A DNA stretch of 41,757 nt from a virus (IMGVR_UViG_3300030060_002456:1-41757), one strand, 5' to 3'; shown: positions 2,931 to 10,645, numbered from the stretch's first letter. The notes: generated by a model not told the origin, from the sequence alone. Numbers and translations: made by a program.

Positions 2931-2963
2931 CAAAAAAAAAGAGAGCCTATTACAGACTCTCTT
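2931..2963 (-). terminator. Rho-independent terminator, leftward
   Basis: A stem of AAGAGAG at 2939-2945 with CTCTCTT at 2957-2963 is flanked on the left by ten A, which read as a U-tract in leftward RNA. It closes transcription from the DUF932 operon and the structured element next to it before the ERF operon begins. Confidence 0.8.
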
Positions 2964-2980
2964 CTTTATCCTAAAACACA

Positions 2981-3165
2981 AGCCAGACAGAGGTTACTAT
3001 TCTGGTTTTCCGTGCGCACCCACTATCAAGTGTTTTAGTTTGTCAGACAAAACTAGGGATAAACTAGTGTTTGACATTACTGCTTATAGCATCCGACTGC
3101 TAATATACTAAGCTTACCAATATTACTGGTATCCAGCTGCTCACCGCTGGCGTGTCGTTTATCCC
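2981..3165 (-). ncRNA. Structured RNA element A between DUF932 and ERF genes
   Basis: This gap has no credible reading frame but much pairing. The main domain is closed by GGGATAAAC (3056-3064) with GTTTATCCC (3157-3165), nine perfect pairs, and contains TACCA/TGGTA (3115-3130) and CCAGC/GCTGG (3133-3150) hairpins. A second part at 2981-3055 has CCAGA/TCTGG and TAGTTT/AAACTA hairpins. The stop codon of the DUF932 gene (3159-3161) lies inside the closing stem, so the element can only be part of, or processed from, that leftward message. A terminator follows at once. No known RNA family was recognised and tRNA features are absent. It may be a 3' stabiliser, a processed small RNA or a decoy. Confidence 0.55.
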
Positions 3166-3968
3166 ATTGCTTTTCTAGCATAACCCACTAATCCATCTAC
3201 TATGTATGCATTGTGGTCAAAATCAGACTTTGTCTGCTTTGTTTTATGCCATGTTACGTTAGTTCCTGCATTTAATAAATCATACGTTGTAAGCATTTCC
3301 ATAGGCTTATAATCTAATAATTTATCAACTATATTTCCAAACAAAGATACAGGTAGTTTGTCTAAGAAATCATTTCTTATTAAACTTAATTTATCTATGT
3401 CTAAAGCTTCGTCTGACATATATCTTAAAGCTTTAATTACATATCTAATTTTATCATCTGATCCTTGTATTAACTTTACAGCTTCCATTATCTCATCTTC
3501 GTAATTAGCGGAGTTCTTATCATGTTTAAACCTAAAAGATTTAAATACATCATTAGAAATCATACCATTAAGACAAGCTAATCTCTGTATGTATAATTTA
3601 AATTGCAATGCTGTTGATCCATCATAGCTATTCCAAATCATCATACCAAGACCTAAATCATCATCAACTTTTACATTGTGATTTTGAGATGCGTCTTTTG
3701 ATACCATGGAATACATAAATTGTTTACCATTCCAAAATATCTTATCTTGCTCCCATTGATAACCTGATGCTGCTGCAATATCATTTATTAACTCTTCTAC
3801 TTTTGTATTATCTATTAATAAATAATTATCGCTAACTACACCTAGTTCTTGCCATTCTGATTTGTCAGTTAAATTTTCTATTTGTACTGACCATGCATTT
3901 GATTTTACACCCATATATTCTAAAGGTACTTTTCTTATTGGACTATACCATTCTGGTACTTGTTTCAT
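3159..3968 (-). CDS. DUF932 (phage/plasmid-like TIGR03299) protein
   Basis: A 269-residue protein of the DUF932 family, common in phages and plasmids and of uncertain function. Family marks are the N-terminal ELGVVSDNYLLIDNTKV segment and the central D-G-S-TALQFKLYIQRLACLNGMI block at about residues 117-135, where the conserved L..RL.C.NG pattern is clear. Members are often near replication or recombination genes, as here. It starts behind AAGGAGAT ten bases after the stop of the upstream 100-residue gene, so it is co-transcribed with the genes up to 4778. Its stop codon is buried in the closing stem of RNA element A, which is unusual. Confidence 0.85.
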   Translation of the reverse strand: MKQVPEWYSPIRKVPLEYMGVKSNAWSVQIENLTDKSEWQELGVVSDNYLLIDNTKVEELINDIAAASGYQWEQDKIFWNGKQFMYSMVSKDASQNHNVKVDDDLGLGMMIWNSYDGSTALQFKLYIQRLACLNGMISNDVFKSFRFKHDKNSANYEDEIMEAVKLIQGSDDKIRYVIKALRYMSDEALDIDKLSLIRNDFLDKLPVSLFGNIVDKLLDYKPMEMLTTYDLLNAGTNVTWHKTKQTKSDFDHNAYIVDGLVGYARKAMG

Positions 3969-3978
3969 TTTTATCTCC

Positions 3979-4281
3979 TTAATCTACTCTTATCATTGAA
4001 AATGGTACTGTATAATGCACCATTTGATCTCTATACTTATCATAGCAATCTACAACTGCTCTTGTCTTATTTATTTTAACAATCTTACCTTTATCTACCT
4101 TTCCAGAACCATTTATTCTTACTTCTTGTCCTACAATAAGATTAAATCCATTTGCTCTAGCTAATTTCTTTCTTCTATGTATAAGGTAATCTTGTATTTT
4201 CTCTAAATCATCTAAACTATTTAGATTATCTATATTCTTTTCTATTTCAAATAACGTTACTTCTCTTGGATCTTGCTTCAT
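3979..4281 (-). CDS. Small KOW-like conserved phage protein
   Basis: I place the start at 4281 rather than at the in-frame ATG at 4305: AAGGAG lies six bases before 4281, and this ATG overlaps the stop of the upstream gene as ATGA. The resulting 100 residues have an N-terminal helical part (LFEIEKNIDNLNSLDDLEKIQDYL, then HRRKKLA) and a C-terminal beta domain from about residue 52, VGQEVRINGSGKVDKGKIVKINKTRAVVDC..., ending YTVPFSMIRV. The beta part has the G-x-V-x-x-I-N-x-x-R-A-x-V pattern of KOW-like small barrels, seen in similar proteins of marine T4-like phages. A role in nucleic-acid or ribosome interaction is possible but not shown. Confidence 0.8.
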   Translation of the reverse strand: MKQDPREVTLFEIEKNIDNLNSLDDLEKIQDYLIHRRKKLARANGFNLIVGQEVRINGSGKVDKGKIVKINKTRAVVDCYDKYRDQMVHYTVPFSMIRVD

Positions 4282-4454
4282 TGTTTTCTCCTTATTAGTT
4301 TCCATTTGCCTGTAATTAAAAGATTATGTTCTATTTTATCCATTAGTTCTTTTTGATTATTTATTTCTCCATCTTCCCATAAATCTTCATCAGGAATTTC
4401 TTCCCAATAAGAACGAGTTGAAAATAGTTCTTTATATAATTTTAATTGATTCAT
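4278..4454 (-). CDS. 58-residue protein with MNxLKLYKELF N terminus
   Basis: A short leftward gene with AAGGAG five bases before its ATG at 4454. It overlaps its upstream neighbour by four bases (ATGA) and its downstream neighbour likewise, which strongly supports it as a real gene. The product is acidic in the middle (EEIPDEDLWEDGE) with a helical C-terminal half ending KWKLIRRKQ. The first eleven residues, MNQLKLYKELF, nearly repeat those of the 68-residue protein at 8643-8849, and the underlying 24 bases are identical. Function unknown. Confidence 0.75.
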   Translation of the reverse strand: MNQLKLYKELFSTRSYWEEIPDEDLWEDGEINNQKELMDKIEHNLLITGKWKLIRRKQ

Positions 4455-4678
4455 TTCTTCTCCTTAATATCAATTATTAATTTATTAGGATTCTTGGTTA
4501 TAGTACCTGCTGGTCCACCTGGTTTATAACCTTCGTGTATTTTTATATTCAGTGTTGTTCCGCTTTTAAGCTGCACTGTGCCTACAAACCTATGATCTAC
4601 ATTAACAAAGATACCATCCTTGTTACGTTTTAATATTTTCTGATACTTACGTGATTTGTTTAAATAGAATTTACACAT
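4451..4678 (-). CDS. Small beta-rich protein, unknown
   Basis: A 75-residue protein, strongly basic at the N terminus (NKSRKYQKILKRNKDG) and beta-rich after that (HRFVGTVQLKSGTTLNIKIHEGYKPGG). Its ATG lies inside the end of the zinc-ribbon gene upstream in the eight-base overlap ATGTGTAA, and its stop overlaps the next ATG. I do not recognise the family. A single cysteine at residue 2 gives no metal site. The tight coupling implies coordinated, probably roughly equal, expression with its neighbours. Confidence 0.75.
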   Translation of the reverse strand: MCKFYLNKSRKYQKILKRNKDGIFVNVDHRFVGTVQLKSGTTLNIKIHEGYKPGGPAGTITKNPNKLIIDIKEKK

Positions 4679-4778
4679 CTTTTTCTTCTTCTAAACATTT
4701 ATAGCACATTCTTTCTTCTGCGTCTCCTTCAACAATATCTTGATAGGGAAACTCACATTTAATACATGTCCATTTCAT
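4671..4778 (-). CDS. 35-residue zinc-ribbon microprotein
   Basis: ATG at 4778 follows AAGGAG at good spacing. The product has two CxxC knuckles, CIKC at residues 5-8 and CYKC at 25-28, separated by 16 residues: enough for a single zinc ribbon and little else. It leads the operon 4778-to-3159 that also holds DUF932. Two other very small zinc-ribbon genes occur in this region (9539-9697 and 9890-10042). Such miniature ribbons in phages may bind nucleic acid or a host protein; nothing here decides which. Confidence 0.75.
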   Translation of the reverse strand: MKWTCIKCEFPYQDIVEGDAEERMCYKCLEEEKDV

Positions 4779-4803
4779 ATTTTTCTCCTTAATTAAAAGA
4801 TAA

Positions 4804-4929
4804 CAAAAAGAAAGAGAGCCTCACATATTCCTTTGCCTAGACTGAACCACCTTTGCAGTTTGATTATATCAGTATTTAGTAGCTACTAACCTTGGACTAG
4901 GACTTACAGGACCAGTTATTGGCTCTCTT
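4804..4929 (-). ncRNA. Structured RNA element B with terminal U-tract
   Basis: The gap between the radical-SAM gene and the zinc-ribbon gene folds into one closed domain. The outer stem is AAGAGAGCC (4812-4820) with GGCTCTCTT (4921-4929), nine pairs. Inside are CCTAG/CTAGG (4836-4840 with 4897-4901), the 14-base palindrome at 4876-4889 centred on TAGTAGCTACTA, and ACTG/CAGT around 4841-4859. In leftward RNA the outer stem is followed by UUCUUUUUG, so the whole may act as a terminator with a roughly 100-base apical domain. It begins five bases after the radical-SAM stop codon. No tRNA or known family is recognised. Confidence 0.55.
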
Positions 4930-4933
4930 AATT

Positions 4934-5794
4934 TTAGAATATATATCTAATTTTTTGCCAAGGCACAACAGTGTTATGCAATTGCTTAAAATCTTTTATA
5001 TATTGTTTTTTGTTATGTCGGTTATACCTAATATTTAAACAACCATACTCAGAAGTTTTAGGTTCTTGCAAGTCTGGTCGCCATAAATATTTTTCGCCAT
5101 TTACATCGTTTATAACGTTGTATTTGTGCATTTCTTTGTTATGTGTTAAAAATATACATTCTGCTTTTACTTTATGTTTTATAGATTCATCTACAATAGA
5201 ATCCACAAGTTTAAATAAATCATTATAATCTTTTTGAAAGTTTTCATACATGATTATTGGTGAATAATTTAAATGAACATCATATCCTGCTTCATAAAAG
5301 TCATTTACCGCTTTTATTCTATCTACAATCTTAGATGTACCAGGTTCTAGTATATCTGATAGTTTTTGCGGCATAATACTAAATCTTATTCTGACTTTTC
5401 TATTAGCATTGTAAGACAATAAGTTTTTGTTTACATATTTTGTTGCAGCAGTACCCATTGCCTTTGGATCATTTTTAAAGTAATCAAATAAGTATTCCCA
5501 ATCATGATATTTAGCATGTAATACATAATCTTCGTTGCAACTAAAATCATATGTGTAATATTTACTATGTGTCTGATTGGGTTCTTTAGGCCACTTTAAT
5601 AGCCATAGATGTCTTGCTATAGCATCTATGATTTGCTCTGTATTTTTGGCTATTGTTAAGCCTTTTTTAACATGTCTACGCATATAACAGTAGCTACATT
5701 TATATAAACAACCATAACCAAAGCTTGGTGTTATAAAATCACTGCTTCTGCCAGATTCTCTTATTATCATTGCTTTTCTATTTACATATTTCAT
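4934..5794 (-). CDS. Radical-SAM protein, spore photoproduct lyase-like
   Basis: A 286-residue protein with the 4Fe-4S cluster motif CX3CX2C at C29, C33 and C36 (GCLYKCSYCY), the spacing used by spore photoproduct lyase (SPL) and other radical-SAM enzymes. Before it is NRKAMIIRESGRSSDFITPSFGYG; later blocks (RKVRIRFSIMPQ near 137, KIVDRIKAVNDFYEAGYDVHLNYSPII near 158-183) match the SPL-like barrel plan. SPL uses an adenosyl radical to revert a UV thymine dimer. The protein is shorter than Bacillus SPL (about 340). A phage could use it for DNA photodamage repair or for another radical reaction. It stands alone between RNA elements B and D, with AAGGAAT as ribosome site. Assignment to radical SAM is secure; the SPL substrate is inferred. 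Confidence 0.8.
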   Translation of the reverse strand: MKYVNRKAMIIRESGRSSDFITPSFGYGCLYKCSYCYMRRHVKKGLTIAKNTEQIIDAIARHLWLLKWPKEPNQTHSKYYTYDFSCNEDYVLHAKYHDWEYLFDYFKNDPKAMGTAATKYVNKNLLSYNANRKVRIRFSIMPQKLSDILEPGTSKIVDRIKAVNDFYEAGYDVHLNYSPIIMYENFQKDYNDLFKLVDSIVDESIKHKVKAECIFLTHNKEMHKYNVINDVNGEKYLWRPDLQEPKTSEYGCLNIRYNRHNKKQYIKDFKQLHNTVVPWQKIRYIF

Positions 5795-5810
5795 ATTATT
5801 CCTTAGTTTT

Positions 5811-5895
5811 ATAGAGCCTGCAAGGTAGTTCTATTGCAAATGTATGATCTTGATCATCCCATAGCTCATCCTGACAGTAATCTTACAGGCTCTAT
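5811..5895 (-). ncRNA. Structured RNA element D, 5' leader of the radical-SAM gene
   Basis: ATAGAGCCTG (5811-5820) pairs with CAGGCTCTAT (5886-5895). In leftward RNA the stem continues through a U-G wobble and three more pairs to 14 in all; in rightward RNA the wobble would be a C-A mismatch. The interior holds CTAT/ATAG and the perfect hairpin ATGATC-tt-GATCAT at 5844-5857. The element ends 16 bases before the AUG of the radical-SAM gene with no U-tract between, so it would lie in that gene's 5' untranslated leader and could control it. The 79-base length of the closed part recalls a tRNA but no T-loop or anticodon arm fits. Confidence 0.55.
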
Positions 5896-5900
5896 TTATT

Positions 5901-6056
5901 AATGTAGTCAATGCAACTGTAACCCTCAATACGATAAATCGTTTTGTGTCGGCTGGGCTTATTCAGCTTAGTTAATACAGTGCCATACAGGTTCTCTTAG
6001 AGATCAGGAATATTGCATATGCTCACAAGTATCTCCGTGACTGACATGACTACATT
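5901..6056 (-). ncRNA. Structured RNA element C
   Basis: AATGTAGTCA (5901-5910) pairs with TGACTACATT (6047-6056), ten perfect pairs, closing a 156-base domain. Inside are ACGAT-AA-ATCGT (5931-5942), GCTG/CAGC (5953-5966), ACTGT/ACAGT, TCTC/GAGA near 5995 and GAGAT/ATCTC, which suggests a multi-branched fold. The stop codon of the DUF6915-like gene (6050-6052) lies inside the closing stem, as in element A. It is directly followed in leftward RNA by element D. No family was recognised. Confidence 0.55.
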
Positions 6057-6400
6057 AAAGTGTGTTTCTTTAGTACATTTTTCTTGGTGCTTGCCATCCA
6101 AGGTTTTGGTTTAATACTACTAAGCCAATCTTGAACACTTGGAATAAATCCTAAATCCTCACGTATATGCTGTTCTGCTATTGATCTAACAGGAACATCT
6201 TTGTTATCTGAGTTATTTATTATTATTCCAAACTTCTTTTCACACTCTTTAATACCTTGAGTGTGATGTCTTAGTGCTCTATGGCGTAAATCACCATAAT
6301 AATCCTTAGTTTCGTCAAACCAAGCGTGTATTTGGTAGTAGTCACCTTCTCTACCACCAAATAACTTTACACTTGATTTACAATGATGCACTGATTTCAT
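6050..6400 (-). CDS. DUF6915-like conserved phage protein
   Basis: A 116-residue protein rich in histidine and tryptophan. Its N-terminal HHCKSSVKLFGG, the block WFDETKDYYGDLRHRALRHHTQGI at about 28-51, and VPVRSIAEQHIREDLGFIP near 70-88 match, from memory, the DUF6915 family found widely in phages. The many conserved H and C residues could bind a metal, but no function is established. Its ATG overlaps the stop of the DUF6878-like gene (ATGA), so the two are translated together. The stop codon sits in the closing stem of RNA element C. Confidence 0.8.
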   Translation of the reverse strand: MKSVHHCKSSVKLFGGREGDYYQIHAWFDETKDYYGDLRHRALRHHTQGIKECEKKFGIIINNSDNKDVPVRSIAEQHIREDLGFIPSVQDWLSSIKPKPWMASTKKNVLKKHTLM

Positions 6401-6966
6401 ACTTCGTGCAACTCACTGTCATAACCAAACTCTGGATCATCACCATTAAGAAAATATCTTTCTGTAACATCATTGCAAGCACGTACATTTTGTTCACCAT
6501 TTACAGTAAGATTTTCTTTTTCTAAATCCCAAAGAACTTCACCTTGACCACCTTCGTTGTTATACCAATCATAATCAACAAGATCTACAAGTTCATAATG
6601 AAGTTCACTTTGAAGTTTTAAATCAGGATGTTTTTCTCTGAATTTATCATAATCTTTTTGAAGTTGTACTTGATTTCTTGTAAAATTCTTATATTTATCA
6701 AAGTTTTCTTCTTTATTATGATTCCATGCTTCAGTTTGATAATGATCATGCCAAGTATTTCCATTACTTGTTACTTTAAGATCTATTTTACCTTTCCAAC
6801 CTTCTGCATGATAACATTCACCAGAATCACCACATCCTTCATACCATACTCGTATATATTTATAGCCAAGTCCTTTTAAATACTTGTTTAATAATTTATA
6901 CGACTTTGCTTGTTCTTTTCTTGCTTTTATTCTATCTTCGTGCCATTTTGATACGTCAAAACTCAT
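6397..6966 (-). CDS. DUF6878-like conserved phage protein
   Basis: A 189-residue acidic protein. The C-terminal region, with DLVDYDWYNNEGGQGEV at about 127-143 and VNGEQNVRACNDVTERYF after it, fits the DUF6878 family as I know it; the N terminus is helical and charged, followed by YIRVWYEGCGDSGECYHAEGW, a loop with two cysteines and several acidic residues. Function unknown. GGAGG lies five bases before the ATG. It heads the two-gene unit with the DUF6915-like gene, after terminator F. Confidence 0.8.
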   Translation of the reverse strand: MSFDVSKWHEDRIKARKEQAKSYKLLNKYLKGLGYKYIRVWYEGCGDSGECYHAEGWKGKIDLKVTSNGNTWHDHYQTEAWNHNKEENFDKYKNFTRNQVQLQKDYDKFREKHPDLKLQSELHYELVDLVDYDWYNNEGGQGEVLWDLEKENLTVNGEQNVRACNDVTERYFLNGDDPEFGYDSELHEV

Positions 6967-6994
6967 ATTACCTCCGTAATTATTAATATTAACG

Positions 6995-7067
6995 AAAAAA
7001 AAGAGAAATTAGAAGCAAGCATCTGTAGTGCGGGATTGTAATATGGGTTTGCTTACTTCTATTTCTC
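6995..7067 (-). terminator. Long-stem Rho-independent terminator F
   Basis: GAGAAATTAGAAGCAAGCA (7003-7021) pairs with TGCTTACTTCTATTTCTC (7050-7067): 18 pairs with one bulged T. The single C-A mismatch of rightward RNA is a U-G wobble in leftward RNA. In leftward sense it ends with eight U. The 28-base apical loop is GC-richer than its surroundings. The stem is far longer than an ordinary terminator needs. Confidence 0.75.
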
Positions 7068-7069
7068 AA

Positions 7070-7292
7070 TTCTTTGGGGCGAACCATCTGTTATTTTCGA
7101 GGTGTATTGAGTGATCAGCCATGTCGTCCCCCGACCATGTTAGTATATTGTCAACATCGTCCACCAAGATGTATTGAAAATACTTAGGTCATCATCCTTA
7201 CCTCTTCATTCCTTTGTTTCAGAGTTGGACTAAGTTTTGGCATACTTTGTCAGTGCTCTCGAGATGCATTTAAACTGATCCTGCGTATGCCA
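7070..7292 (-). ncRNA. Structured RNA element E
   Basis: This is the rest of the gap 6967-7300, which contains no credible gene. TGGCATAC (7238-7245) pairs with GTATGCCA (7285-7292), enclosing TCAGT/ACTGA (7250-7278) and the palindrome TCTCGAGA. A second hairpin is AGTAT/ATACT (7142-7146, 7180-7184) enclosing ACATC/GATGT, and a third is CATGTCG/CGACCATG (7120-7139) with one bulge. It starts nine bases after the stop of the 69-residue gene and leads into terminator F, so gene, folded region and terminator form one unit as elsewhere. No known RNA family was recognised. Confidence 0.5.
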
Positions 7293-7300
7293 GGCAACAT

Positions 7301-7510
7301 TTACATTAATCTTAATCTATTTTTAGCATATATAACTTTTGATGATAACATTCTTTCATCTTCGTTATATCTACCTCTCATTATAACTTTTTGTATAGAT
7401 CTATTTTCACGTATATATGATTTAAGTTCATACTTATTCATTATTCTTATCTCGTCAAAATTATTATCTACATTAAATACTGTTCTTATTATTGCTGCTC
7501 TTGTGCTCAT
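7301..7510 (-). CDS. 69-residue basic protein, unknown
   Basis: A small basic protein (MSTRAAIIRTVFNVDNN ... AKNRLRLM) with no motif I recognise. The ATG at 7510 overlaps the stop of the upstream gene as TAATG and has AAGGAGAG upstream. It is the last gene of a four-gene unit starting at 8243, and its stop lies nine bases before structured element E. Confidence 0.7.
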   Translation of the reverse strand: MSTRAAIIRTVFNVDNNFDEIRIMNKYELKSYIRENRSIQKVIMRGRYNEDERMLSSKVIYAKNRLRLM

Positions 7511-7755
7511 TATTGCTCTCCTTTAAATTTCTCATATTTATTAAAGTAATCATCTGTTACTTCTACTTGTATTAATTCAGGTTCGTTACCTAAATGATAC
7601 AAAAAAAAAGAGAAATCTAAATCTTCGTCAAGATAAACATTGTCATTTTTTACATATGAACTTGATGAGATGAAGTCAAGCAATCCTAACCTTGCAAGTT
7701 CTGATTTCTTGACCTCAACCCATCCTTTTGTATCTCCTACAAAATGTCTATACAT
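7510..7755 (-). CDS. 81-residue acidic protein, unknown
   Basis: I take the ATG at 7755, giving 81 residues (MYRHFVGDTKGWVEV...). It lies in an eight-base overlap (ATGTATAG) with the stop of the upstream gene, the same arrangement as at 4671-4678 and 8643-8650. A longer form from 7797 is possible but would overlap the upstream gene by 50 bases; AAAGGAG is about 15 bases from 7755, and a TTG at 7764 would have better spacing, so the start is not certain. The C terminus is acidic and aromatic. No family recognised. Confidence 0.7.
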   Translation of the reverse strand: MYRHFVGDTKGWVEVKKSELARLGLLDFISSSSYVKNDNVYLDEDLDFSFFLYHLGNEPELIQVEVTDDYFNKYEKFKGEQ

Positions 7756-8044
7756 CAATGACAACAGGTTCTCCTTTACCATCTGATGTATATACAATTA
7801 ATGACAAGTTTTTAAACACAGACAATGTATTTATAACTTGTAGTAGTTGTTGATGTGATAAATTGTGTTTTACAGCCATTTGCTCTGCATCTTTAAATAT
7901 TTCTACATTATATTTACAATCAGATCTAAATGAGTTTACCACATTTCTGCTTACATTTTTTGTAGCTCTGTACAAATTTGCTATACCCCAAGTTGTATGT
8001 GCAAATATTTTTGAAAGTACAGATAGTATTGTTAGTTTACTCAT
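7748..8044 (-). CDS. 98-residue protein, unknown
   Basis: A 98-residue protein with an N-terminal semi-hydrophobic helix (MSKLTILSVLSKIFAHTTWGIANLYRA), a basic middle (TKNVSRNVVNSFRSD), and a helical C-terminal half. The N terminus is not hydrophobic enough to be a clear membrane segment, but could associate peripherally. AAAGGAGG precedes the ATG by five bases. It overlaps its upstream neighbour by eight bases and its downstream neighbour likewise. No family recognised. Confidence 0.75.
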   Translation of the reverse strand: MSKLTILSVLSKIFAHTTWGIANLYRATKNVSRNVVNSFRSDCKYNVEIFKDAEQMAVKHNLSHQQLLQVINTLSVFKNLSLIVYTSDGKGEPVVIDV

Positions 8045-8243
8045 CTTTACCTCCTTTGAACATATCTATATTTTTACTTTGGTAATAGTCTCTTTTGCTT
8101 GAATGATAATATTCCCATATTGGTATTCTTTGTGCTATTATATTACTCATATGTTCAAGTTTAGGTAGTTGATTTTCATCAAATCCTAAATCACGACCTC
8201 CTTCGTCAAGAAAGTCCATTACTTTATTTTTCATTTTTCCCAT
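8037..8243 (-). CDS. 68-residue protein, unknown
   Basis: A short, mixed-charge protein (MGKMKNKVMDFLDEGGRDLGF ... MFKGGKDE) with AAGGAG before its ATG. It is the first gene of the unit 8243-to-7301, following the terminator at 8284-8315. No motif recognised. Confidence 0.7.
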   Translation of the reverse strand: MGKMKNKVMDFLDEGGRDLGFDENQLPKLEHMSNIIAQRIPIWEYYHSSKRDYYQSKNIDMFKGGKDE

Positions 8244-8283
8244 ATCTCTCCTTTGTAAGGGTTATAATTTACAAAAAAACAAC

Positions 8284-8315
8284 AAAAAAAAGGAGCAATT
8301 TCTGCTCCTCTTTTT
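8284..8315 (-). terminator. Bidirectional Rho-independent terminator
   Basis: AGGAGCA (8291-8297) pairs with TGCTCCT (8303-8309) around a five-base loop. Eight A on the left and a T-run on the right would serve as U-tracts in either direction; the genes here run leftward. Confidence 0.85.
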
Positions 8316-8337
8316 ACATCAACGAATGCATTACCCG

Positions 8338-8385
8338 ATCTGTTTTAGATATAATTAGAATAGTTGGGTTGATTCTATTACAGAT
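8338..8385 (-). ncRNA. Small folded element I after the 87-residue gene
   Basis: ATCTGT (8338-8343) pairs with ACAGAT (8380-8385) and encloses TAGAAT/ATTCTA (8356-8361, 8372-8377). It begins two bases after the stop codon of the gene at 8387 and is followed by a terminator, the same order seen in the larger gaps. Confidence 0.4.
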
Positions 8386-8386
8386 G

Positions 8387-8650
8387 TTAATCGCCTATTC
8401 CTATAACAGGGAATATTTCGCTATCTTCCTTGTTTGCATGATACATAGCTCCAGCATCATTTCCTTCATCATCAGCTTGTGGGTATAACCAAGTACCATC
8501 ACTTAATTTAAATGCTACTGGTCTATTACCCCATCTCATATGTTCTGCTTCTTCATCAGACATATATTCAACTGCTACTATTTGCTTTCCTAAGACTCGT
8601 TTTTCCGCTATTTCAGTCCACCTATCTTGAATCTCACGTTTTTTACTCAT
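8387..8650 (-). CDS. Conserved small phage protein (DGTWLYP...DDEGN family)
   Basis: Start at 8650 gives 87 residues; it overlaps the upstream stop by eight bases (ATGAGTAA). A start at 8668 is in frame but has no better ribosome site. The core, LGKQIVAVEYMSDEEAEHMRWGNRPVAFKLSDG followed by TWLYPQADDEGNDAGAMY, matches a small family I have seen in phages and environmental bacteria without a known function; the pattern R-P-V-x-x-x-L-x-D-G-T-x-L-x-P-x-x-D-D-E-G-N is characteristic. Probably a compact beta-rich domain. Confidence 0.75.
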   Translation of the reverse strand: MSKKREIQDRWTEIAEKRVLGKQIVAVEYMSDEEAEHMRWGNRPVAFKLSDGTWLYPQADDEGNDAGAMYHANKEDSEIFPVIGIGD

Positions 8651-8849
8651 CCGTTTCCCTTTCTTCATTTATCATTGTAAAAGTTTTATCATTCATTATT
8701 TCTATTATTATCTCTACGATAATATATCTTGCTCTTGCTGATAAATCTCTGTTTGCTCTTTTCATAAATTGATAAAAGTCTTTTTCACCCATTATTTCTA
8801 CATTGCTATGTTGTATAAATAGTTCTTTATATAATTTTAAGTAGTTCAT
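8643..8849 (-). CDS. 68-residue protein with MNxLKLYKELF N terminus
   Basis: The product starts MNYLKLYKELF, almost the same as the protein at 4278-4454, then diverges. The rest is helical and contains YIIVEIIIEIMN, a short aliphatic stretch. The ribosome site is weak. It leads a two-gene unit with the 87-residue protein and follows the terminator at 8879-8911. The shared N-terminal block with its 24 identical bases suggests duplication or a selected N-terminal peptide. Function unknown. Confidence 0.7.
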   Translation of the reverse strand: MNYLKLYKELFIQHSNVEIMGEKDFYQFMKRANRDLSARARYIIVEIIIEIMNDKTFTMINEERETDE

Positions 8850-8878
8850 TTTTTTTCCCGTGTACGTTAAGTAGTAAC

Positions 8879-8911
8879 AAAAAAAAAGAGAGCCGTGAGG
8901 CTCTCTCTTTT
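8879..8911 (-). terminator. Rho-independent terminator
   Basis: AGAGAGCC (8887-8894) pairs with GGCTCTCT (8899-8906) around a four-base loop, eight perfect pairs, with nine A on the left (U-tract in leftward RNA) and CTTTT on the right. It ends the single-gene unit at 8919-9209. Confidence 0.9.
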
Positions 8912-8918
8912 ATACTAA

Positions 8919-9209
8919 TTATTTAGTACTTAGATTTGGAACTAATTTAATAGTTACCATATCATCTTCTGCATTTAACTCATCACGCCAAATTACATAA
9001 GAATTTCCCGAACCCGACAATCTAATATTGCCTCTAAAGTTTAGATTTTCTTTTAATGTATCTAAACATTCAGGATACGGATCTTCTGTCAATGATAAAT
9101 TATTAGACTCAATTGGAACTGATATAAAATCTACATCTTTGTTCATTGATTTATGTTTAATATTATCATCATTTTCTTGTTTCTGCCAACATATAACTTT
9201 GATATCCAT
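8919..9209 (-). CDS. 96-residue acidic protein, unknown
   Basis: A 96-residue protein: basic first twenty residues, then an acidic middle (ESNNLSLTEDPYPECLDTLKENL) and a beta-rich end (GNIRLSGSGNSYVIW, MVTIKLVPNLS). AAGGAT is the ribosome site. It stands alone between terminators at 9260-9298 and 8879-8911, so it has its own promoter or depends on read-through. No family recognised. Confidence 0.7.
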   Translation of the reverse strand: MDIKVICWQKQENDDNIKHKSMNKDVDFISVPIESNNLSLTEDPYPECLDTLKENLNFRGNIRLSGSGNSYVIWRDELNAEDDMVTIKLVPNLSTK

Positions 9210-9259
9210 TTGAATATCCTTTCTGCTTATAATAAGCGTTTATTTAACTAACATAACAT

Positions 9260-9298
9260 AAAAAAAGAGAGCGTATGTGATACAAATTACGCTTTTTA
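9260..9298 (-). terminator. Bidirectional terminator
   Basis: AGCGTA (9270-9275) pairs with TACGCT (9288-9293); a run of A precedes and TTTTT follows. In leftward RNA the stem is followed by CUCUUUUUUU. Confidence 0.7.
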
Positions 9299-9325
9299 TT
9301 CATTGGCTTTTTTGTTTGTAAAAAT

Positions 9326-9451
9326 AGAGAGATTAGAGAGGCTACCATAATTACTCTCAGAATTCATAGCGGACTCCCGTGCTTTTTGAGTTATTATTTA
9401 ACCTCCACCTAAATGTAGCCCAACATTATAACCTCACCTCTCTAATTCTCT
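9326..9451 (-). ncRNA. Structured RNA element H
   Basis: AGAGATTAGAGAGG (9328-9341) pairs with CCTCTCTAATTCTCT (9437-9451): 14 pairs with one bulge, closing a domain of about 125 bases. Inside are GGCTAC/GTAGCC (9340-9345, 9415-9420), ATAATTACTC/GAGTTATTAT (9347-9356, 9388-9397; nine of ten pair), and GG/CC around 9370, so a stem of stacked helices can form. An alternative hairpin AATGT/ACATT (9412-9427) competes with GTAGCC. A run of A lies just left of the outer stem. Part of the 329-base gap 9210-9538, which holds no gene. Confidence 0.55.
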
Positions 9452-9464
9452 TTTTTTAAGCATA

Positions 9465-9535
9465 AATAAAGAGTATAACCTTGCTCGGTAGTCCTATTTC
9501 ATACTGACGTGAGACTCACAGGTTATATCTTTATT
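9465..9535 (-). ncRNA. Structured RNA element G
   Basis: AATAAAGAGTATAACCT (9465-9481) pairs with AGGTTATATCTTTATT (9520-9535), sixteen pairs with one bulged G. The 38-base interior has GTGA-GAC-TCAC and TAGT/ACTG options. It begins three bases after the stop of the zinc-ribbon gene at 9539-9697 and is followed in leftward sense by element H. Confidence 0.55.
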
Positions 9536-9538
9536 ATT

Positions 9539-9697
9539 TTATATGCCTTTCCATTTATAATCGTCTATACAATCATTACATATTGGATTATCTCTGCAAT
9601 CACTTTTAATTAATTCTACTTTACACATATCATTGCAATAATCACATTCTATCCAACTATTTAAATAGTCTTTAATAACGTTGCCTATTGTTGTCAT
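9539..9697 (-). CDS. 52-residue zinc-ribbon protein
   Basis: ATG at 9697 follows GAGGT at seven bases and gives 52 residues: a short helix (MTTIGNVIKDYLNSWIE), then CDYC at 18-21, a further C, a C in KSDCRDN, and CNDC near 40-43. Four cysteines in two CxxC pairs can bind one zinc. The frame stays open upstream to 9790, but those 31 codons read across folded element J and have no ribosome site, so I exclude them. Function unknown. Confidence 0.75.
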   Translation of the reverse strand: MTTIGNVIKDYLNSWIECDYCNDMCKVELIKSDCRDNPICNDCIDDYKWKGI

Positions 9698-9736
9698 AGT
9701 AACCTCTATTTTTTTAACAGAACACAAAAAAAGAGG

Positions 9737-9801
9737 AAGCCAACTAGAAGAAAGATTACTATTGGTATTGATTGACACATCTGCTTTCAACTAATTGGCT
9801 T
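9737..9801 (-). ncRNA. Structured RNA element J with U-tract
   Basis: AAGCCAACTAG (9737-9747) can pair with CTAATTGGCTT (9791-9801): eleven pairs in leftward RNA, one of them a U-G wobble that would be a C-A mismatch in rightward RNA. Leftward RNA then reads CCUCUUUUUUUGUG, so the element ends like a terminator. Confidence 0.5.
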
Positions 9802-9849
9802 TATAATGAAGTATGTAGAAGATATTAGGAATATAATGAACATTATACA

Positions 9850-9886
9850 CAAAAAAAGAGCAAACTAATTAATAGTATGCTCTTAT
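9850..9886 (-). terminator. Rho-independent terminator, repeated copy 1
   Basis: AGAGCA (9857-9862) pairs with TGCTCT (9878-9883), extended inside by ACTA/TAGT around a TTAA loop; seven A lie to the left. A near copy occurs at 10066-10101. Confidence 0.85.
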
Positions 9887-9889
9887 ATT

Positions 9890-10042
9890 TTAGTTAGTTA
9901 TATCTTTTATTGTTAAAGGATTATTTCCATATTCTATAAAATCGAAGCAATCTTTACAAACTTTAATTACTCCTAATGAACAACAAGGACAAGATACGTT
10001 TTTAAAAGTATTTATTTTTTCTTTACATTTACTGCAATTCAT
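9890..10042 (-). CDS. 50-residue zinc-finger microprotein
   Basis: ATG at 10042 follows AAGGAGG. The product has CSKC at residues 3-6, CPCC at 18-21 and CKDC at 29-32, eight... six to seven cysteines in 50 residues, enough for one zinc ribbon and part of a second. The C-terminal end is EYGNNPLTIKDITN. It is a single-gene unit between two almost identical terminators. Function unknown; nucleic-acid or protein binding is possible. Confidence 0.75.
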   Translation of the reverse strand: MNCSKCKEKINTFKNVSCPCCSLGVIKVCKDCFDFIEYGNNPLTIKDITN

Positions 10043-10065
10043 TACGCCTCCTTTTAATTATACAT

Positions 10066-10101
10066 AAAAAAAGAGCACACTAACAAGTAGTATGCTCTTT
10101 G
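10066..10101 (-). terminator. Rho-independent terminator, repeated copy 2
   Basis: AGAGCA (10072-10077) pairs with TGCTCT (10093-10098), extended inside by ACTA/TAGT; one interior pair is U-G only in leftward RNA. Seven A lie to the left. Confidence 0.85.
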
Positions 10102-10261: not shown

Positions 10262-10345
10262 CGTGTTACCTCACGTTTAATTAACAATACATAAATAAAG
10301 AGTACATATTAATTTCAACGTAAATGTGTAGCACTCACAAATCAA

Positions 10346-10395
10346 TGTAAGGATTTAGTAAAAGATAACCTATCGTGTGTGTGTAAGGATTGAGT
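10346..10395. repeat. Pair of 14-base direct repeats
   Basis: TGTAAGGATTTAGT (10346-10359) and TGTAAGGATTGAGT (10382-10395) differ at one base and start 36 bases apart, with a GTGTGTGT run just before the second. They could be protein-binding sites on one face of the helix. Confidence 0.55.
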
Positions 10396-10457
10396 TAATC
10401 GTAGTCTCACCCCCTCCTGCCTCGGGGGACACACCACCGTTAGCTCACACGTGTGTT

Positions 10458-10483
10458 GGGCGAGGCGAGTGGGGTGGGTGGGG
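10458..10483 (+). other. G-quadruplex-type G-run cluster
   Basis: Four G-runs lie on the + strand: GGG (10458-10460), GGGG (10471-10474), GGG (10476-10478) and GGGG (10480-10483), with loops of ten, one and one bases. The long first loop makes a quadruplex possible but not certain. Confidence 0.45.
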
Positions 10484-10615
10484 ACATAGATTGGTGTGTG
10501 AGAATAGGTTGAATGGAACTAACGTAACCAACTCAACCTAATCGAACACCCCAACCCCTACATTCAAGGGGGGTAGGTTAACTGAATCTCTTCCACACTC
10601 ATTCTAAAATAAGTT

Positions 10616-10645
10616 TTGATATATAGCACTCTCCTTTTGTATATT
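10616..10645 (+). promoter_or_regulatory. Sigma70-like promoter for rightward genes
   Basis: TTGATA (10616-10621) and TATATT (10640-10645) each match the consensus at five of six positions with 18 bases between. The predicted start would fall at about 10652, which is the ATG of the next gene. Random matches are common in AT-rich DNA, so this is tentative. Confidence 0.35.

What the first reader, a model, noticed from the sequence alone, without database searches (positions are those of the whole stretch)
2931..10101. Array of folded leftward RNA elements filling nearly every early-region gap
Seen: each leftward intergenic gap of more than about 60 bases holds closed stems of 8-18 pairs (2981-3165, 4804-4929, 5811-5895, 5901-6056, 6995-7067, 7070-7292, 9326-9451, 9465-9535, 9737-9801), usually in the order stop codon, folded domain, stem plus U-tract, next gene. 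In four long stems (5811-5895, 6995-7067, 9737-9801, 10066-10101) the lone C-A mismatch in + sense becomes a U-G pair in leftward RNA, so the pairing fits the transcribed strand. Inference: these are selected RNAs, not just terminators; the large apical domains (70-140 bases) exceed what termination needs. They share no obvious sequence with one another, and I recognise no family. They could be stable small RNAs, 3' message protectors, or decoys for host nucleases or defence.
Basis: partly seen in the sequence, partly recalled or inferred. Interest (0 to 1): 0.78.

Follow-up and report, generated by a model that had tools for sequence, protein, structure and literature searches.

The report
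Swappable structured RNAs between phage genes
Gaps between early genes of this uncultivated phage, and of more than a hundred related viral DNA pieces, hold a mix-and-match set of folded RNAs that evolution has clearly preserved, that match no catalogued RNA family, and whose job is not yet known.

Summary
The short stems are ordinary terminators. The large domains belong to at least seven conserved RNA families found in other uncultivated phages, none in Rfam. Folding energy alone is too weak to show this (7070-7292: z about 0); comparison shows it. The commonest family (M1, 4804-4930) has about 125 distinct copies, a near-invariant core and compensatory changes in 10 of 11 closing-stem pairs; six further families covary. 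Copies sit between one gene's stop codon and the next gene's ribosome site, beside unrelated genes; one junction can hold M1, M4, M5a, M4+M5a or nothing. Long phage contigs usually carry one copy per class. Modules nest in each other's loops: 40 of 109 M1 inserts (one a false hit) recur outside M1, against 0 in five shuffled sets. I infer, without expression data, that they are released from early mRNAs and act in trans on host factors. Cis protection or processing of messages is the main rival.

The parts
4804..4930 (-). M1 module: closing stem AAGAGAGCC/GGCUCUCUU, near-invariant internal loop AAUAACUGG/AAUAUGUGA, P2 UCCU/AGGA, inner AAGUCC...GGC, variable cap; here the closing stem runs into a U-tract
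   Evidence: CM R1 76.8 bits, E 1.6e-18; about 125 distinct copies elsewhere; covariation
5897..6060 (-). M2 module, closed by AAUGUAGUCA/UGACUACAUU
   Evidence: homologues in about 10 phage loci; 6 of 30 pairs with compensatory changes, 0/500 shuffles reach the score
5811..5895 (-). long hairpin, possibly a divergent M4 (GUAAG...GUCAG...AGAACUACC..GCAGG)
   Evidence: z -3.6; R2 hit 17.6 bits, E 0.019, weak; homologues in L001, L004, L198
6991..7068 (-). long stem with U-tract (terminator-like, about 30-base loop)
   Evidence: z -5.8; homologue only in near relative L001
7068..7240 (-). M3 module: AGUCC..GGAUA hairpin carrying the cap UGAAACAAAGGAAUGA, plus GGGG-CGACAU...AUGGNUCG-CCCC domain
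   Evidence: 13 sequences, 12 of 22 pairs compensatory, 97.9% of cells paired; no energy signal
7226..7290 (-). M6 module: UGGCAUAC...GUAUGCCA with inner covarying hairpin; also found without M3 (L017, L060)
   Evidence: 10 sequences, 3 of 10 pairs compensatory
3050..3166 (-). M5a module: GGGAUAAAC/GUUUAUCCC closing stem, CCAGCGGUGAGCAGCUGG hairpin, AGCAGUCGGAUGCU hairpin
   Evidence: 8 sequences, 136/136 cells paired, 8 compensatory pairs; 18 viral stretches
2970..3052 (-). M5b module, adjoining M5a here and in L001, L013, L026
   Evidence: 6 distinct copies, all flanked by co-directional genes
2931..2967 (-). ordinary intrinsic terminator after M5b
   Evidence: z -4.5
9467..9533 (-). M4 module: fully variable closing stem, core GUGAGNCUCNCGUC-hairpin-ACCGAGCA
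   Evidence: R2 77.6 bits, E 1.3e-20; 11 of 16 pairs compensatory; 24 viral stretches
9326..9453 (-). M11 candidate: GAGAGGUGAGGUUAU...GUAGCCUCUC with conserved inner segments and variable inserts
   Evidence: one homologue, L097, E 1.1e-33; leftward z -2.2
9722..9804 (-). M12 module: conserved 23-base loop GAUGUGUCAAUCAAUACCAAUAG on a variable stem, closed by a U-tract stem; lies downstream of a TATAAT-containing stretch with no convincing gene between
   Evidence: z -3.6; stem covaries in 10 sequences, 5 of 6 pairs, score 0.863 vs 0.336 shuffled; 11 viral stretches
8882..8911 (-). ordinary intrinsic terminator
   Evidence: z -5.5
8285..8315 (-). ordinary intrinsic terminator
   Evidence: z -4.6
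9850..9895 (-). terminator-like hairpin with U-tract, followed by TATAAT-like sequence
   Evidence: z -4.2; sequence
10070..10100 (-). ordinary intrinsic terminator, followed by TATAAT-like sequence
   Evidence: sequence

Best explanation
Shown: the large leftward domains are members of several phage-borne structured RNA families, transcribed in the direction of the early genes and placed between a stop codon and the next ribosome site. They are built from self-contained modules that recur alone, in tandem, or as caps in each other's loops. Inferred: each class works as a phage non-coding RNA gene. It is co-transcribed with early genes, ends in a stable closed stem that survives as a discrete RNA, and acts in trans, most likely by binding host proteins or RNAs (takeover or counter-defence). 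This would explain why a genome usually carries one copy of a class, why position and neighbouring gene do not matter, and why caps are exchanged.
For: Covariation: M1, M4 (54), M5a (61), M12 (89), M3 (93), M2 (94), M6 (60, weaker). Sense-strand wobble: 22 G-U against 5 A-C exceptions in 60 distinct M1 stems, p 0.0015 uncorrected for relatedness. Non-coding: insert lengths 39/43/45 in the three classes mod 3. Position: M1 starts a median 16 nt after a stop and ends 21 nt before a start; 103 downstream proteins fall into 39 clusters. One SPL 3' junction holds M1, M4, M5a, M4+M5a or nothing. Copy number in 40 long contigs: M1 31 with one, 5 with two, 4 with none; M4 12 with one, none with two. 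Nesting: 40 of 109 inserts recur in non-M1 contexts, 0 in five shuffled sets. Of 32 bacterial genome hits to the M1 3' core only one (L198, in a Flavobacteriales MAG) has the 5' core too. Tandem arrays in the window and in L008, L100, L021.
Against: No RNA-seq, no target, no measured activity. Tight placement before ribosome sites would also suit a cis role. The 40 contigs were not a random sample (most were fetched for carrying M1) and may be incomplete. Scarcity of second copies could also reflect selection against repeats, since the phage encodes an Erf-like annealing protein. The host is unknown, and the function is inferred by exclusion.
Confidence: 0.45

Rival explanations
1. Cis elements of the message: compact folded plugs between cistrons that stop 3'-to-5' decay, insulate translation of neighbours, or mark RNase processing sites. 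Any stable module serves, so classes interchange.
For: Snug fit between stop codon and ribosome site; different classes at the same junction; in the window several are followed by U-tracts.
Against: Does not predict near-invariant internal-loop cores or about one copy per class per genome; several modules stacked in one gap seem excessive; some junctions have none.
Confidence: 0.28
2. New self-cleaving ribozymes that cut early polycistronic RNA between genes.
For: Compact conserved core with variable closing stem and freely variable peripheral insert; intergenic position.
Against: No match to any ribozyme family in Rfam; no permuted forms noticed (not searched systematically); M5a, M2 and M3 do not look like one ribozyme class; catalysis untested.
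Confidence: 0.1
3. Mobile DNA elements or recombination sites (REP/MITE-like, or integron attC-like hairpins with variable centre) that insert between genes.
For: Variable positions, nesting, variable-length centre between conserved arms, Erf-like annealing protein nearby.
Against: Usually one copy per genome; where both flanking genes were scored, M1 is co-directional with both in 75 of 86 cases; sense-strand G-U bias; no integrase or transposase among the proteins searched.
Confidence: 0.1
4. Ordinary intrinsic terminators with long loops, as the only function.
For: Explains 2931-2967, 8285-8315, 8882-8911, 9850-9895, 10070-10100.
Against: 113 of 127 M1 copies have no T-rich tail; conserved cores and covarying inner helices are not needed for termination.
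Confidence: 0.03

Closest known systems
GOLLD and ROOL RNAs (phage- and prophage-borne ornate RNAs; PMC12286853, PMC2864571)
   Same: structured phage RNAs of unknown function, defined by covariation; a GOLLD occurs in L086, which also carries M1
   Different: GOLLD and ROOL are far larger single RNAs, often near tRNA islands (PMC12286853); the modules here are about 45-230 nt, of many classes, and lie between early protein genes
RAGATH motifs and phage self-cleaving ribozymes (recalled from general knowledge, not checked in a paper here)
   Same: small structured RNAs in phage gene gaps, several classes near each other
   Different: no Rfam match to any such family at gathering threshold; cleavage untested; caps shared between classes are not a feature I know for them
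Marine phage-associated candidate RNAs manA and wcaG (PMC2864571)
   Same: structured RNAs of phage and metagenome DNA found by comparative analysis
   Different: those sit in potential 5' UTRs of particular metabolic genes; M1 precedes unrelated genes
Intrinsic terminators
   Same: several elements of the window end in a U-tract
   Different: the same modules elsewhere mostly lack one

Membership tests
Intrinsic terminator | GC-rich stem directly followed by a U-tract (five short stems of the window) | tested here: met
Intrinsic terminator | GC-rich stem directly followed by a U-tract (M1 as a family) | tested here: not met
   113 of 127 copies lack a T-rich tail
Any Rfam 15 family | score at or above the curated gathering threshold | tested here: not met
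   0 matches in the window; best sub-threshold matches are implausible
GOLLD | match to RF02032 | tested here: not met
   no match in the window; separate GOLLD locus in L086
Self-cleaving ribozyme | match to a known ribozyme family | tested here: not met
Self-cleaving ribozyme | self-cleavage in vitro | not testable with these tools
   needs bench assay
Gene-specific riboswitch or leader | consistent downstream gene family | tested here: not met
   103 proteins downstream of M1 in 39 clusters, largest 18
Repeat or MITE-like mobile element | multiple copies per genome | tested here: not met
   M1 one copy in 31 of 40 long contigs, two in 5; M4 never two
Integron attC site | integrase and arrays of like sites | tested here: inconclusive
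   one M1 in the whole record, so no array of like sites; no integrase among the window proteins searched, but not all proteins were searched
tRNA or tmRNA | ARAGORN or Rfam tRNA match | tested here: not met
   0 in the window
Trans-acting phage sRNA | discrete RNA accumulates during infection | not testable with these tools
   no expression data

The most novel reading that the evidence does not exclude
These phages carry a combinatorial, recombining repertoire of structured RNA modules, an RNA counterpart of the exchangeable small early anti-host protein genes: conserved scaffolds with swappable caps, usually one of each class per genome, acting in trans against host defences or RNA machinery.
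Probability: 0.3. Interest if true: 0.92.

Novelty: new variant of a known kind. Interest (0 to 1): 0.78.

Why it matters
Structured phage RNAs are known mainly as a few large families of unknown function. Here several unlisted families share one genomic niche and exchange parts, giving natural evidence for RNA domain shuffling and a well-defined set of short testable RNAs. If they act on the host they would be a class of phage effectors that protein-based annotation misses; if they act in cis they reveal how these phages manage early messages.

Tried and rejected
Folding energy as sole test: too weak for the large domains. Rfam at permissive E-values: only implausible hits. GenBank phages: no DNA match for the early region or for an M1 consensus; the SPL-like protein has no relative there and the terminase only below 60% identity. 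Bacterial genomes: 32 hits to the M1 3' core, all but L198 without the 5' core, so taken as chance. Protein 8919-9209 gave no relatives. Coding explanation for M1 inserts rejected by uniform length mod 3. De novo clustering of gaps merged many modules into one component of 257 gaps, and the greedy module split stopped on an error after eight families, so the full vocabulary was not counted. A first test of short caps was inconclusive (14 of 71 against 7 shuffled); the longer-insert test was decisive. Literature searches found no description of these modules, within an open-access library only.

Full report
The window is a 41.8 kb uncultivated virus record with rightward head and tail genes from about 11 kb (portal, terminase, head and tail proteins) and leftward early genes from about 10.3 kb to 1 (primase/helicase, Erf-like annealing protein, DUF932, an SPL-like radical SAM protein, DUF6915). 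No GenBank phage matches the first 25 kb at DNA level.

Observation. Against dinucleotide shuffles the short stems and long hairpins are strongly folded, but the large domains range from z -2.5 to about 0. Energy alone would therefore leave the question open.

Homology. Using relatives of three early proteins, elements 4804, 5901, 7070, 9465, 2978 and 9737 were found again in other phage contigs, often at other gene borders. No copy was found in bacterial genomes with both M1 core halves except L198, a contig of a Flavobacteriales MAG that may itself be phage DNA. Habitat and host were not established.

Structure. M1: 10 of 11 closing pairs show compensatory changes, 97.3% of cells paired, score 0.578 against 0.181 in shuffles and at most 0.205 when slid. 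The core was partly used to find copies, so the invariance of its 3' half is partly by selection; the 5' half and the closing stem were not in the search pattern. M4: 11 of 16 pairs. M5a: 136 of 136 cells paired, 8 compensatory. M3: 12 of 22, M2: 6 of 30, M12: 5 of 6, M6: 3 of 10. Related sequences inflate such scores, and the M2 and M3 structures were derived from the same alignments, but the slid controls, which keep relatedness, are clearly lower in every case counted that way. Exceptions in the M1 stem are G-U on the transcribed strand (22) rather than A-C (5).

Context. M1 lies a median 16 nt after a stop and 21 nt before a start; the genes that follow fall into 39 clusters. At the SPL 3' junction different phages have M1, M4, M5a, M4 followed by M5a, or no element. 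Forty long contigs carry M1 once (31), twice (5) or not (4), and M4 once (12) or not (28). The window has one of each, with a weak second M4-like score at 5805-5899.

Modularity. M1's inserts run from 3 to at least 146 nt. Of 109 inserts of 28 nt or more, 40 match sequence outside M1, against 0 in five shuffled sets; one of the 40 (L098_2031) is a false M1 in coding DNA. Examples: the L226 cap is also inside M2 (L126 and L054); the cap of window M3 (UGAAACAAAGGAAUGA), exactly or with one or two changes, tops M1 in L017, L064, L075 and L158; the L004 insert scaffold reappears in L249 with M12 as its cap; the L227 insert occurs as a free-standing hairpin in L160, L077 and L139. Modules also stack in tandem: M5a-M5b in the window, M1-M5a in L100, M4-M5a in L008.

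Interpretation. These are selected RNAs; that part I hold at about 0.95. What they do is inferred. Usually one per class per genome, no fixed neighbour, conserved cores and exchangeable caps fit trans-acting phage RNAs best; cis protection or processing remains a serious rival, and ribozymes or mobile elements are less likely. The Erf-like annealing protein beside M5 (2418-2882) could drive exchange between short shared stems; that is a conjecture.

Noticed in passing
window 10285-10640: GC-rich, strongly folded divergent intergenic region (z -4.4 leftward) with partial conservation in L012 and L060; possibly an origin or control region.
   Followed up: no
window 9857-9838 and 10072-10057 (leftward): Some leftward terminators are followed at once by TATAAT-like sequence (TTTTTTTGTGTATAAT), suggesting terminator-promoter relays between early genes; the general promoter scan is not above chance.
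   Followed up: partly
L057:8863-9014: The M1 insert contains a tRNA T-arm-like stretch (GUAGGGUUCGAAUCCCU) inside a longer foldable insert.
   Followed up: no
L086:799-1219: A GOLLD RNA (RF02032, 192.7 bits) in a phage contig that also carries M1, with a tRNA nearby.
   Followed up: no
window 4934-5794: Spore-photoproduct-lyase-like radical SAM protein (PF20903, E 5.8e-22) found in 45 viral loci but not in GenBank phages.
   Followed up: partly
L082:5625-5884: Another large conserved gap element (AAAGAUUUUGGUAAC...GUUACCAAAAAUUU), 13 hits, not in the window.
   Followed up: no
L239 (IMGVR_UViG_2716884438_000001): M5a-carrying record whose identifier differs in form from the others; might come from an isolate or single cell and so give a host. 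Only a 35-base match to Synechococcus phage S-PM2 was found.
   Followed up: partly
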